This document shows positions 16,510 to 50,359 of a stretch of DNA of 64,000 nucleotides, piece after piece. The notes below the pieces were generated by a model. The model was not told the origin of the DNA. It searched no databases and saw nothing but the letters and a program-made list of their open reading frames with translations. The translations under genes and the position numbers were made by a program. This DNA comes from Thermoleophilia bacterium SCSIO 60948 (GTDB taxonomy: Bacteria > Actinomycetota > Thermoleophilia > Solirubrobacterales > 70-9), in contig CP053031.1 in NCBI GenBank assembly GCA_021496505.1, positions 248,001-312,000 of the forward strand, in the 5' to 3' direction. Within the stretch, counting starts at the first letter, position 1, and each line of letters opens with the position of its first letter.

Positions 16510-16649
16510 CGCGAGACCGCTACTCCCGCCCCCGGACCGGGTTCTCTCATTTCACCGGGCCTCGGGTTGTTCGCCCTCGGGACCGGCTCTGCTTAAATCG
16601 TGCGCCGATCCCCGGCATGAGGGCGGGGATCCGAGGGAGAGAGAGTCAC

Positions 16650-18929
16650 TTGCGCAAACTGATCCCGAGCCTGGTGCTTGCCGCCGGGCTGCTCGTACCG
16701 ACGCAGGCGTCGGCTGAGATCCCGTCCGTCTTCAACGACGCGGACAGCCCGCCGATCGCGTGCGAGGTTCAGGGCGCAGGAGCGAATGAGGGTCAGCGGT
16801 GGTGCACTACCCCGTCAGGCGAGGATTCATCCCGCGTTGCCAGCTTCGACAATACGCCCATCGATGTCAGCGTCGTGATACCCCCGGAGCCCGCGCAAGG
16901 CGTCGACGGGGACTTCCCCTTGCTGGGCCTCTACCACGGATACGGCGGCAACAAGAACAGCGTCGGACTGCGCCCGGGAGACGCCACCGTGCAGCACTGG
17001 GTCGACAAGGGCTACGCGGTGTTCACGATGACCGACCGGGGTCTCGGCCAGTCCTGTGGCGCTCCGTCCTCACGCGAGGACCTCCCGTCCTACTTCAACT
17101 GCGACAACGGCTTCATCCAGCTCCTCGACCAGCGCTACGAGGTTCGGGACGCCCAGACCATGATGGGGCTGCTCGCCGACGACGGCGTCATCGATCCGCA
17201 GCGGATCGGCGCCGGGGGCGGCTCCTACGGCGGCGCGATGGCGATCCAGCTCGGCGCGCTCAAGAACCGGATCCGAAACGAGGACGGGTCTTACTCCCCG
17301 TGGACGAGCCCGGACGGCCTCGCGATGGAGATCTCGGCGACCGCGCCTGAGATCACCTGGTCCAACCTCTCGCAAGCATTGCTTCCCAACGGCAGTCGTC
17401 TCGACTACGCGACACGTGACCCCTATCTGCGACCCGGTGCCGAGAGGACCGGCGTCGAGAAGCAGGTTCTCCTGAACGGGCTCTATGCCGGTGGCGCCCC
17501 GCCCAACGGCTACTACCAGACCGAGATCGGCGGACCCGCCGACATAACGCGCTGGAAGACGATCTTCGACACCGGTGGTCCGTATGACACTGGCGAGAAC
17601 GCCGAGCTGATCCGTGAGATCAACAGCGAGCTCTCGAGTTTCCACTCGGTCAATGGAATCGCGCTGAACGGAGCCGACTCGGTTGACCCCGCGCCCGCGC
17701 TCTTGACGAACGGGTGGGTCGACGATCTCTTCCCGGTGGACGAATCGGTCGGCTACTACAACCGCGTACGCGAAGCCTTCCCCGATAACCCGATTTCGAT
17801 GTTCCACTACGACAAGCCGGGACATCCCCGCGGTGTTGGACGCTCAGGCGACGCCGCCGAACTGCTCGCGCGCCAAGACGAGTGGATGGACTTCTACGTG
17901 AAGGGTGAGGGCGCTGACCCTGAATCCGGCGTTGCGGTGAAGCCCATGACATGTCCCAGCTCGCAGCCGTCGGGAGCGACGGTCGAGGCGCCCACCTGGG
18001 CTGAACTCGCGCCGGGCGAAGTTCGCTACTCCGCACCCGGCGATCGGACGATCGCCGGCGGTGGGGGCGCTGTCGACCAGCCCGGCGGTCTGCCGGGCAC
18101 TGACTGCGGCCCGGTCCCCTCTGATCCCTATCCGGGCGCCGTGACGTACGAGTTCGGGCCGGCGCCGACGGGCGGCTACACGCTGCTCGGCTCGCCGACG
18201 GTCCTTGCCAACTTCGACCTGACGGGGTCGAACGATCAGGTCGCGGTCCGGCTGGTCGACCTCGCCTCGCCCGACGCCGACGAAGGCACGCTCGTCGCGC
18301 GCGGCGTATGGCGCCCGGCGGTCGGCGAACCGAACGCGAGGCAGGTCTTCCAGCTGCACCCGAATGGATGGAAGGTCGAGTCCGGCCACGTGCTGTCGCT
18401 TCAGCTGATGCCGGCGGATTCGCCCTACAGCCGCCGGAACCCCACCAGCGGTGGCCAGGACGTTGTCCAGAATCCGGTCGGTGTGTCCAATCTCGAGCTG
18501 CGCCTCCCGGTGGGTGAGAGCCCGGGGGGAGAGGTCAAAGAGCCCGCCCCGAAGCTCGTGCCGCTCGGGTACGAACTGTCCGGCGACTATCCCGCGACGA
18601 GCGTTCCGCGCCTGCGTGCATCCGCCTCACCGCGGTCTCGTACCGTCAAGCGTGGCCGAGCCGCGGAGTACACGCTCCGCGTGACCAACATCGGTACGGC
18701 GGCGGCGCGTGAAGGGCAGGTCTGCGTCTCGCTACGACGCAAGGTCGGTGCCGCCAAGTGCGTCGGCCTCGGCGAGCTCGGTCCCCAGAACGGCGAGACC
18801 CGAGCGGCGCGGATCAAGATCCGCACGAAGAAGCGAGCTCGACCGAAGACCTATCCGCTGAAGTTCAAGCTGATCGCGGCTGACGCCCGCCCAGTCAGGG
18901 TGCCGGCCAAGTTGCGGATACGTAAGTAA
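16650..18929 (+). CDS. Secreted CocE/NonD-type alpha/beta hydrolase with basic C-terminal domain
   Basis: The 759-aa product has a signal peptide (cleavage near the ASA at 20-22) and an S15/CocE-like alpha/beta-hydrolase domain. The nucleophile elbow is GGGSYGG (S192); a downstream NGWVDDLFP gives an acid and DKPGHPRG a histidine. A PepX_C-like jelly-roll region follows (about 470-640), then a ~105-residue basic domain ending in RK. It probably hydrolyses acylated or peptide substrates outside the cell. I prefer TTG 16650 (SD-like GAGGGAGAGAG just upstream; MRK... signal parallels the next gene) over ATG 16617, which adds 11 residues. The C-terminal domain resembles that of the next protein. 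Confidence 0.8.
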   Translation: MRKLIPSLVLAAGLLVPTQASAEIPSVFNDADSPPIACEVQGAGANEGQRWCTTPSGEDSSRVASFDNTPIDVSVVIPPEPAQGVDGDFPLLGLYHGYGGNKNSVGLRPGDATVQHWVDKGYAVFTMTDRGLGQSCGAPSSREDLPSYFNCDNGFIQLLDQRYEVRDAQTMMGLLADDGVIDPQRIGAGGGSYGGAMAIQLGALKNRIRNEDGSYSPWTSPDGLAMEISATAPEITWSNLSQALLPNGSRLDYATRDPYLRPGAERTGVEKQVLLNGLYAGGAPPNGYYQTEIGGPADITRWKTIFDTGGPYDTGENAELIREINSELSSFHSVNGIALNGADSVDPAPALLTNGWVDDLFPVDESVGYYNRVREAFPDNPISMFHYDKPGHPRGVGRSGDAAELLARQDEWMDFYVKGEGADPESGVAVKPMTCPSSQPSGATVEAPTWAELAPGEVRYSAPGDRTIAGGGGAVDQPGGLPGTDCGPVPSDPYPGAVTYEFGPAPTGGYTLLGSPTVLANFDLTGSNDQVAVRLVDLASPDADEGTLVARGVWRPAVGEPNARQVFQLHPNGWKVESGHVLSLQLMPADSPYSRRNPTSGGQDVVQNPVGVSNLELRLPVGESPGGEVKEPAPKLVPLGYELSGDYPATSVPRLRASASPRSRTVKRGRAAEYTLRVTNIGTAAAREGQVCVSLRRKVGAAKCVGLGELGPQNGETRAARIKIRTKKRARPKTYPLKFKLIAADARPVRVPAKLRIRK

Positions 18930-18970
18930 CAACGTAAGGAAAGAAAGCCATTCCCTTGGGAGGAAATCAA

Positions 18971-20491
18971 GTGAGAAAAACGATGAGCTGGCTGCTCGGC
19001 TCGCTGATCGCACTGCTGGTGTTCCCAGCGGTGTCGCAGGCGGCGCCTCAGCCGTTCGAGCTCGACCTGCCGAACGCGGACCTGACCCTCAACGACGGCG
19101 TCCAGACGCTCGAGAGCTCAGATCCGAACGGAAGCACGTTCACCGGCACGGTGGACGATGTGACGGGAGCGATCACAGTTCCCCAGGCCAACGTCGACAT
19201 CGCGCAGTTCGCGTCGACGTCGGACCCGGCGTTCCCGATCATCGCTAGCCCTCAGACGGACTTCACCGGTTCGTATGACGAGGAGACGGGCGATCTGTCG
19301 CTGAGCGGCACGGTCGACGTCATCACGCCGTTCGGTGGAGGAGCCCAGTGCCGATTCCCGGATCTCGAGCTGAACTTCGAGTCAGCCCCGGGTGAGTACT
19401 ACGAGGGCTTCCCGTTCACGGACGGCCTCGACGGTGACGGCGGAATCGTCGCCGGCTGGGAGAGCATCAACGCTCCGATCGCCGAGGGCGGTGCCCCGCA
19501 GGCCCAGTGCAACCAGATCGGTATCGCGGCCGGCGCTGAGCCGACGCCCGGTCCGGGTGAGCTGTTCCTCTCGCAGGGCGAGCCGCCTGAGCCGACCTCG
19601 CCGTTCGAGCTCGACCTGCCGAACGCGGACCTGACCCTCAACGACGGCGTCCAGACGCTCGAGAGCTCAGATCCGAACGGAAGCACGTTCACCGGCACGA
19701 TTGGCGACGACACCGGGACGATCACAGTTCCCCAGGCCAACGTCGACATCGCGCAGTTCGCGTCGACGTCGGACCCGGCGTTCCCGATCATCGCTAGCCC
19801 TCAGACGGACTTCACCGGTTCGTATGACGAGGAGACGGGCGATCTGTCGCTGAGCGGCACGGTCGACGTCATCACGCCGTTCGGTGGAGGAGCCCAGTGC
19901 CGATTCCCGGATCTCGAGCTGAACTTCGAGTCAGCCCCGGGTGAGTACTACGAGGGCTTCCCGTTCACGGACGGCCTCGACGGTGACGGCGGAATCGTCG
20001 CCGGCTGGGAGAGCATCAACGCTCCGATCGCCGAGGGCGGTGCCCCGCAGGCCCAGTGCAACCAGATCGGTATCGCGGCCGGCGCTGAGCCGACGCCCGG
20101 TCCGGGTGAGCTGTTCCTCTCGCAGGGCGAGCCGGTGCCGCCGGTCACCCCGTCGCTGAGGGTCAGCTCAACCCCGGCGAGCGCCAAGGTCAAGCAGGGC
20201 AAGGCGAAGACCTTCAAGGTGAAGGTTCGCGCCAAGGACGCCACCGGTCCGACGCAGGCCAAGGTCTGCGCCACCGTTCCCGGCGGCAAGAAGGGCCTCA
20301 AGCTCAACGGCAAGAAGTGCCGCAACGTCGGCGGCGTCTATGACGAGGCCAAGACCCTGAAGTTCAAGGTCAAGGCGAAGCCCAAGACCAAGCCCAAGAA
20401 GTACACCCTGAAGTTCAGGGCGACGGCCAACGGCTACAAGGCCGGCCAGGACACCTCGAAGCTCAAGGTGCTCAAGAAGAAGAAGAAGTAG
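18971..20491 (+). CDS. Secreted protein with two near-identical 183-aa units and Lys-rich C-terminus
   Basis: The start is GTG 18971, with GGGAGGAAA ideally spaced upstream, giving about 506 aa. A signal peptide (MRKTMSWLLG..., cleavage near SQAA) is followed by two 183-residue repeats, each with a PFELDLPNADLTLNDGVQT start, a pair of cysteines (one in the AQCRFPDLEL region, one in AQCNQIG) and a FLSQGEP end. The last ~110 residues form a Lys-rich beta-type domain ending in a run of lysines, similar to the C-terminus of the preceding hydrolase. The units look like extracellular beta-sandwich domains; function is unknown. A strong terminator follows. Confidence 0.82.
   Translation: MRKTMSWLLGSLIALLVFPAVSQAAPQPFELDLPNADLTLNDGVQTLESSDPNGSTFTGTVDDVTGAITVPQANVDIAQFASTSDPAFPIIASPQTDFTGSYDEETGDLSLSGTVDVITPFGGGAQCRFPDLELNFESAPGEYYEGFPFTDGLDGDGGIVAGWESINAPIAEGGAPQAQCNQIGIAAGAEPTPGPGELFLSQGEPPEPTSPFELDLPNADLTLNDGVQTLESSDPNGSTFTGTIGDDTGTITVPQANVDIAQFASTSDPAFPIIASPQTDFTGSYDEETGDLSLSGTVDVITPFGGGAQCRFPDLELNFESAPGEYYEGFPFTDGLDGDGGIVAGWESINAPIAEGGAPQAQCNQIGIAAGAEPTPGPGELFLSQGEPVPPVTPSLRVSSTPASAKVKQGKAKTFKVKVRAKDATGPTQAKVCATVPGGKKGLKLNGKKCRNVGGVYDEAKTLKFKVKAKPKTKPKKYTLKFRATANGYKAGQDTSKLKVLKKKKK
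19052..19600 (+). repeat. Tandem repeat unit 1 (549 bp)
   Basis: First copy of an in-frame 549-bp direct repeat. Read side by side, copies 1 and 2 are identical except for one patch of about 21 bp (19151-19171 in this copy) and the junction sequences at their 3' ends. Confidence 0.95.
19601..20133 (+). repeat. Tandem repeat unit 2 (about 533 bp matched)
   Basis: Second copy of the 549-bp unit. Identity with copy 1 ends after the GAGCC at 20129-20133, where the Lys-rich domain begins. Only the patch near 19700-19720 differs from copy 1, changing a VDDVTGA-type stretch to IGDDTGT. Confidence 0.95.
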
Positions 20492-49435: not shown

Positions 49436-50359
49436 ATGCCGGATGGGGACAACAGCTCCGAACGGCCTCGGGGGTCCGCACCGATCGACCGGCTCGCAGA
49501 ACGACGCGACGCCGCCAGCCAACGGATCGCCGAGCGCCGCGCGGCCGCGACCGAGCGCGTCACCGAGGCGCGCGCGGCGGCCACCGAGCGCGTCAGCGAG
49601 GCCCGCGACTCGGCCGTGGAGGCTCGTGCCGCAGCCGCCGAGCGTGTCGCCGGTGCGAAGGCCGCCGCGACCGAGCGCGTCGCCGACGCCAAGGACGCCG
49701 CCGCCGAGTTCATCGCTCGCACGAAGCCGCGGTTCCGCGGCCGCTCGCACGAGTGGGCGTTCTTCCTCTTCCTCGGTCTCGGAGTGACGTTGTTCCTCGC
49801 CGCGGACGGTTCTGAGGCGCGGCTCGCGGCCGGGATCTACGCCGCGAGCCTCACGGCCCTGTTCGGCGTCAGCGCGCTCTACCACCGCGTCGACTGGAAG
49901 CGTCCGGCGGCGCGTCGCTGGATGCGACGCCTCGACCACACGATGATCTTCTTCCTGATCGCGGGCACGATCACGCCGTTCGCGCTTCTGGTCATGGATG
50001 GTCCGCTCGCGACCGCGTTGTTGATCGCGGTCTGGGCCGGCGCCGCCGCCGGCACCGTTGTCGAGGTGATCTGGGTCGAGCGGCCGAAGTGGGTATCGAG
50101 CGTCGTCTACCTGATCGTCGGCTGGATCGGAGCCCTCGGCTTCCCGGCGATCGTCATCGAGACCGGGGCGATCGCCGGCATCCTGATCGTCGCCGGCGCG
50201 CTGCTCTACACCGCCGGAGCCGTGGTCTACGCGACCGGCCGCCCCGACCCCGCGCCCGCCACCTTCGGCTACCACGAGATCTTCCACGCCTTCGTGATCG
50301 CCGCCGCGGCCTCGCACTTCGCCGCGATCGCCTTCTTCGCTCTGCCCGCCGCGACCTGA
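49436..50359 (+). CDS. Hemolysin III (PAQR) membrane protein with N-terminal 11-mer repeats
   Basis: The 307-aa product has seven transmembrane helices of the PAQR/hemolysin-III fold (about 105-305) with its metal-type residues: SALYHRVDW, the RLDHTMIFFLIAGT segment and FGYHEIFHAF near the end. Such proteins are membrane-embedded hydrolases or receptors. Unusually, residues about 20-95 form five to six 11-residue repeats of the AAATERVTEAR type, predicted to be a long amphipathic helix like apolipoprotein/LEA repeats, presumably lying on the membrane. The gene appears leaderless. Confidence 0.87.
   Translation: MPDGDNSSERPRGSAPIDRLAERRDAASQRIAERRAAATERVTEARAAATERVSEARDSAVEARAAAAERVAGAKAAATERVADAKDAAAEFIARTKPRFRGRSHEWAFFLFLGLGVTLFLAADGSEARLAAGIYAASLTALFGVSALYHRVDWKRPAARRWMRRLDHTMIFFLIAGTITPFALLVMDGPLATALLIAVWAGAAAGTVVEVIWVERPKWVSSVVYLIVGWIGALGFPAIVIETGAIAGILIVAGALLYTAGAVVYATGRPDPAPATFGYHEIFHAFVIAAAASHFAAIAFFALPAAT

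What the first reader, a model, noticed from the sequence alone, without database searches (positions are those of the whole stretch)
19052..20133. Near-perfect 549-bp tandem duplication with one 21-bp divergent patch
The two copies are identical over about 510 bp, yet one block of about 21 bp (GTGGACGAT... versus ATTGGCGAC...) carries many changes, giving VDDVTGA versus IGDDTGT. Clustered differences in an otherwise identical repeat suggest recent duplication or gene conversion with a patch of foreign or selected sequence, as in antigenic or adhesive surface proteins.
Basis: seen in the sequence. Interest (0 to 1): 0.62.

Follow-up and report, generated by a model that had tools for sequence, protein, structure and literature searches.

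The report
Doubled domain with one unmatched turn
An actinobacterium of the order Solirubrobacterales carries a secreted-protein gene in which one whole 183-residue domain has been doubled almost letter for letter, except for one 19-base hairpin turn; this looks like ordinary domain duplication plus recombination between repeats, not a new system.

Summary
Two copies (19051-19585 and 19600-20134, period 549 = 183 codons) match at 526 of 535 bases. All nine differences fall within 19 bases (19151-19169), so seven consecutive codons differ: four replacements, three synonymous. Chance clustering is about 2e-12. The copies lie in one open gene: signal-like N-terminus, two 183-aa domains, and a Lys-rich C-terminal NEW3/CARDB-like domain. 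Relatives (about 30% identity, found only in this order and mostly in one genus) that were read carry a single copy, so the doubling is specific to this lineage among genomes held. The patch maps to a predicted beta-hairpin turn, where relatives also vary in length. Neither patch version recurs in the single-contig 3.42-Mb genome, there is no third copy, and no local template was found. The two versions keep D, T and G of the turn, so they look like homologous variants, not unrelated DNA. Best reading: in-frame domain duplication whose copies were homogenised by recombination, leaving one unconverted island. A recent duplication followed by a local allele swap or mutation burst is not excluded. 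No close relative or reads were available to decide. Ordinary kind of event; low interest.

The parts
18956..20491 (+). Gene holding both copies; 511 aa from TTG 18956 or 506 aa from GTG 18971 (start uncertain)
   Evidence: open reading frame; frame unbroken through both copies
18971..19048 (+). Signal-peptide-like N-terminus (VRKTMSWLLGSLIALLVFPAVSQAA)
   Evidence: read from the translation; no signal-peptide program was run
19051..19585 (+). Repeat copy 1 (domain 1)
   Evidence: 526/535 identical to copy 2
19151..19169 (+). Divergent patch, version 1 (VDDVTGA), predicted hairpin turn
   Evidence: corresponding turn in the model of copy 2 lies between strands 29-35 and 41-44
19586..19599 (+). 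Unique 14-bp linker between copies, absent from both outer flanks
19600..20134 (+). Repeat copy 2 (domain 2)
19700..19718 (+). Divergent patch, version 2 (IGDDTGT), predicted hairpin turn
20147..20488 (+). Lys-rich C-terminal NEW3/CARDB-like domain, related to the C-terminus of the upstream peptidase
   Evidence: Pfam NPCBM_assoc E 0.0048, below the curated cut-off; match to the C-terminus of the protein at 16617-18929, E 1.7e-6

Best explanation
The gene encodes a secreted protein in which one whole domain of a family found only in Solirubrobacterales was duplicated in frame and in tandem. The two copies were later made identical again by homologous recombination between them (gene conversion or unequal crossing-over), which missed a 19-bp island coding for a hairpin turn, and the linker. 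The island keeps the divergence that the copies once had. Shown: the duplication, its in-frame boundaries, the single-domain relatives, the confined differences, and the absence of a donor. Inferred: that the identity comes from homogenisation and not from the youth of the duplication, and that the turn is a tolerant, variable site with no special function.
For: 516 flanking bases have no difference while 9 of 19 island bases differ. The differences look like ordinary coding divergence: 5 of 9 at third codon positions, 3 of 7 codons synonymous, D-T-G of the turn kept; unrelated 7-mers share 3 or more residues only about 1% of the time. Relatives differ in length at this same turn, so it is a naturally variable site. 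The linker between the copies matches neither outer flank, as expected if the duplication is older than the unit identity suggests. No paralogue or donor exists elsewhere in the genome. Dense variant clusters, and conversion tracts interrupted by unconverted target sequence, are documented between repeats in M. tuberculosis (PMC12046097).
Against: There is no outgroup with both copies, so the age of the duplication is unknown. Leaving a 19-bp island inside 535 bp needs two tracts that stop on either side, or a patchy repair event. Recombination falls off with divergence, so copies as different as the island could not have converted readily unless the rest was closer. The linker shares 10 bp (CTGAGCCGAC) with a site about 50 bp upstream (1.5-2.3% by chance), so it could instead be filler made when the duplication formed.
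Confidence: 0.5

Rival explanations
1. Recent tandem duplication, then one local event rewrote the turn in one copy: a short allele import from another strain, or a complex multinucleotide mutation.
For: No other differences in 516 bp fits a young duplication. Short filler at the junction with a 10-bp nearby match fits a microhomology-mediated origin. Nine random substitutions keep 3 or more of the 7 residues in 22-24% of stop-free draws, so a burst is not excluded by residue retention.
Against: No template on either strand beyond chance, locally or in the window. No donor in the genome. A random block from unrelated coding sequence would rarely keep three residues (0.8-1.4%). All seven consecutive codons are changed, yet with no stop or frameshift.
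Confidence: 0.28
2. Two alleles that differed at a polymorphic turn were joined in tandem by unequal recombination between strains.
For: It explains an island and otherwise full identity in one step, and relatives vary in length at this turn.
Against: It needs an allele in the population that differs only at this patch; no population data were available.
Confidence: 0.12
3. Assembly or polishing artefact: copy number or patch wrong because repeats over 500 bp were resolved by short reads or from mixed strains.
For: Near-identical 535-bp repeats exceed short-read length, and the sequencing method is unknown.
Against: Single-contig genome. The unit is an exact multiple of three with a unique in-frame linker at the junction, which a simple assembly duplication would not create. 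Both patch versions are in frame without stops.
Confidence: 0.1

Closest known systems
Periscope proteins (tandem near-identical domains in bacterial surface proteins, PMC8201768)
   Same: Secreted protein with tandem, near-identical domains whose DNA identity invites intragenic recombination
   Different: Only two copies; no shown change of repeat number between strains; no LPXTG or other known wall anchor seen; different, unnamed domain
Gene conversion between PE/PPE paralogues of M. tuberculosis (PMC12046097)
   Same: Dense cluster of variants inside otherwise identical repeats; tracts interrupted by unconverted sequence
   Different: Here within one gene at 549 bp distance, with no source copy for the patch in the genome
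Single-domain Solirubrobacterales secreted proteins (e.g. L053, L055, L056)
   Same: Same domain (about 30% identity, shared TG turn and Cys), same order with a C-terminal beta-sandwich-like domain
   Different: One domain copy instead of two; longer insertions in the domain

Membership tests
Periscope proteins | Tandem array of highly similar domains in a secreted or surface protein | tested here: met
   Two 183-aa units at about 97% protein identity behind a signal-like N-terminus
Periscope proteins | Repeat number varies between strains | not testable with these tools
   One genome with this gene; the only other held genome of the genus is 54% complete and lacks a match
Periscope proteins | Cell-surface attachment | tested here: inconclusive
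   No LPXTG-like motif or C-terminal membrane segment seen in the translation; only a Lys-rich C-terminal domain
Gene-conversion mosaic | Clustered differences in otherwise identical repeats | tested here: met
   9 differences in 19 of 535 bp, P about 2.5e-12
Gene-conversion mosaic | Source copy of the divergent tract present in the genome | tested here: not met
   Neither patch recurs, apart from one 3-mismatch hit in an nhaA-like gene; fits a leftover island better than a converted-in patch
Antigenic-variation cassette system | Silent donor copies elsewhere in the genome | tested here: not met
   No third copy or profile match in the genome
Pfam NEW3 (NPCBM_assoc) / CARDB for the C-terminal domain | Score above the curated cut-off | tested here: not met
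   17.5 bits against a cut-off of 24.4; resemblance only

The most novel reading that the evidence does not exclude
The hairpin turn is a targeted hypervariable site: a process diversifies or swaps this turn between strains while recombination keeps the rest of both domains identical, giving one protein two binding specificities on an otherwise identical scaffold.
Probability: 0.04. Interest if true: 0.6.

Novelty: new member of a known kind. Interest (0 to 1): 0.15.

Why it matters
It is a clean small example of a tandem domain duplication with near-identical copies in a little-studied actinobacterial order, and it points to an unnamed secreted domain family confined to Solirubrobacterales in the genomes searched. 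If strain data showed the turn varying alone, it would become a case of focused diversification; nothing here requires that.

Tried and rejected
Patch as foreign DNA: no donor in the genome, no unusual codon pattern beyond one rare ATT codon. Local template switching on either strand: best matches to 19 bases are 13/19, as in shuffles, and no exact match of 12 bases or more occurs in the window. Close relatives: only about 30% identical proteins in 50 family, 232 order and 399 class genomes; the only other genome of the genus is 54% complete and uninformative. A first scan of genome contigs with the domain found nothing, and a profile of all relatives was not conserved enough to scan with. Domain identity: no Pfam, NCBIfam or solved-structure sequence match for the repeat domain. 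The model has mean pLDDT 58 and Foldseek found nothing significant (best E 0.27); VIA-align Z was at most 6.7, to avidin-like barrels and OmpX, within the usual background, so no fold or function is claimed.

Full report
Observation. At an offset of 549 bp, positions 19051-19585 match 19600-20134 at 526 of 535 bases. The mismatches are 19151, 19153, 19155, 19159, 19161, 19162, 19165, 19168 and 19169; the 100 bp before and 416 bp after are identical. If nine differences were placed at random, the chance that all fall in 19 bp is 2.5e-12. A search of the whole genome (one contig, 3,421,728 bp) finds these two copies and no other.

What it is. Both copies lie in one open frame (TTG 18956 or GTG 18971 to 20491). 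The product has a signal-like N-terminus, two 183-residue units, and a Lys-rich C-terminal region with weak, sub-threshold similarity to NEW3/CARDB domains. The C-terminal region is related to that of the upstream gene at 16617-18929, which encodes an S15/acetyl-xylan-esterase-like hydrolase. The period is exactly 183 codons, so the duplication is in frame and covers one whole domain. Between the copies lies a 14-bp linker found at neither outer flank.

Relatives. Protein searches found matches in 12 of 50 genomes of the family, the window's own genome included; apart from the window's own two copies all are about 30% identical (26-40%) and no further ones appear in 232 genomes of the order. 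A profile search over 399 genomes of the class found matches only in this order. The relatives read have one copy of the domain, followed in nearly all complete ones by a C-terminal beta-sandwich-like domain. Named records are Solirubrobacterales MAGs, among them Solirubrobacterales bacterium 67-14. The other genome of the window's genus is 54% complete and has no match. The tandem doubling is therefore specific to this lineage as far as held genomes show.

The patch. Seven consecutive codons differ, four with replacement and three synonymous: VDDVTGA against IGDDTGT. In a modest model of copy 2 (mean pLDDT 58; about 64-67 in this part) residues 35-41 cover the turn between strands 29-35 and 41-44. 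Relatives have fewer residues at the corresponding turn or align there with gaps. Searches for either 21-mer with up to three mismatches in the whole genome return only the copies themselves and one chance hit in an nhaA-like gene. No local template on either strand exceeds shuffles. Both versions keep D, T and G; unrelated 7-mers keep three or more residues about 1% of the time, so they are probably homologous variants of the same turn. Random bursts of nine substitutions would keep three or more residues in 22-24% of stop-free cases, so that test does not exclude a complex mutation.

Mechanism. Two histories fit. In the first, which I favour at about one half, the duplication is older, recombination between the copies has erased differences over 516 bp, and the island and linker are what was missed. 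Interrupted conversion tracts are known in bacteria (PMC12046097), and high identity between tandem domains in surface proteins is tied to intragenic recombination (PMC8201768). In the second, the duplication is young and a single event rewrote the turn. The linker is informative but not decisive: it matches neither flank, which fits age, but shares 10 bp with a site about 50 bp upstream (1.5-2.3% by chance), which could mark filler made at the joint. Only related strains can separate these.

Adhesion remains possible but untested.

Verdict. A confirmed, well-bounded, ordinary kind of event: a domain duplication with near-complete homogenisation or recent origin, in an unnamed secreted domain family.

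Noticed in passing
window 16617-18929 and 20147-20488: Adjacent genes share a basic C-terminal NEW3/CARDB-like domain; the same domain matches many other places in related genomes, so it may be a common sorting or surface-binding tail in this order.
   Followed up: partly
window 49436-50359: An integral membrane protein (hemolysin III-like by eye) begins with tandem 11-residue repeats of the kind AATERVTEARA, from a 33-bp DNA repeat at 49530-49708.
   Followed up: no
G010 contig C2, 201685-209478: Cluster of several S15-like peptidase copies side by side in a related genome, some apparently split.
   Followed up: no
L026 985-2745: A relative with the domain embedded in a 586-aa protein that has extra N-terminal and C-terminal domains, including a PASTA-like tail by eye.
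   Followed up: no
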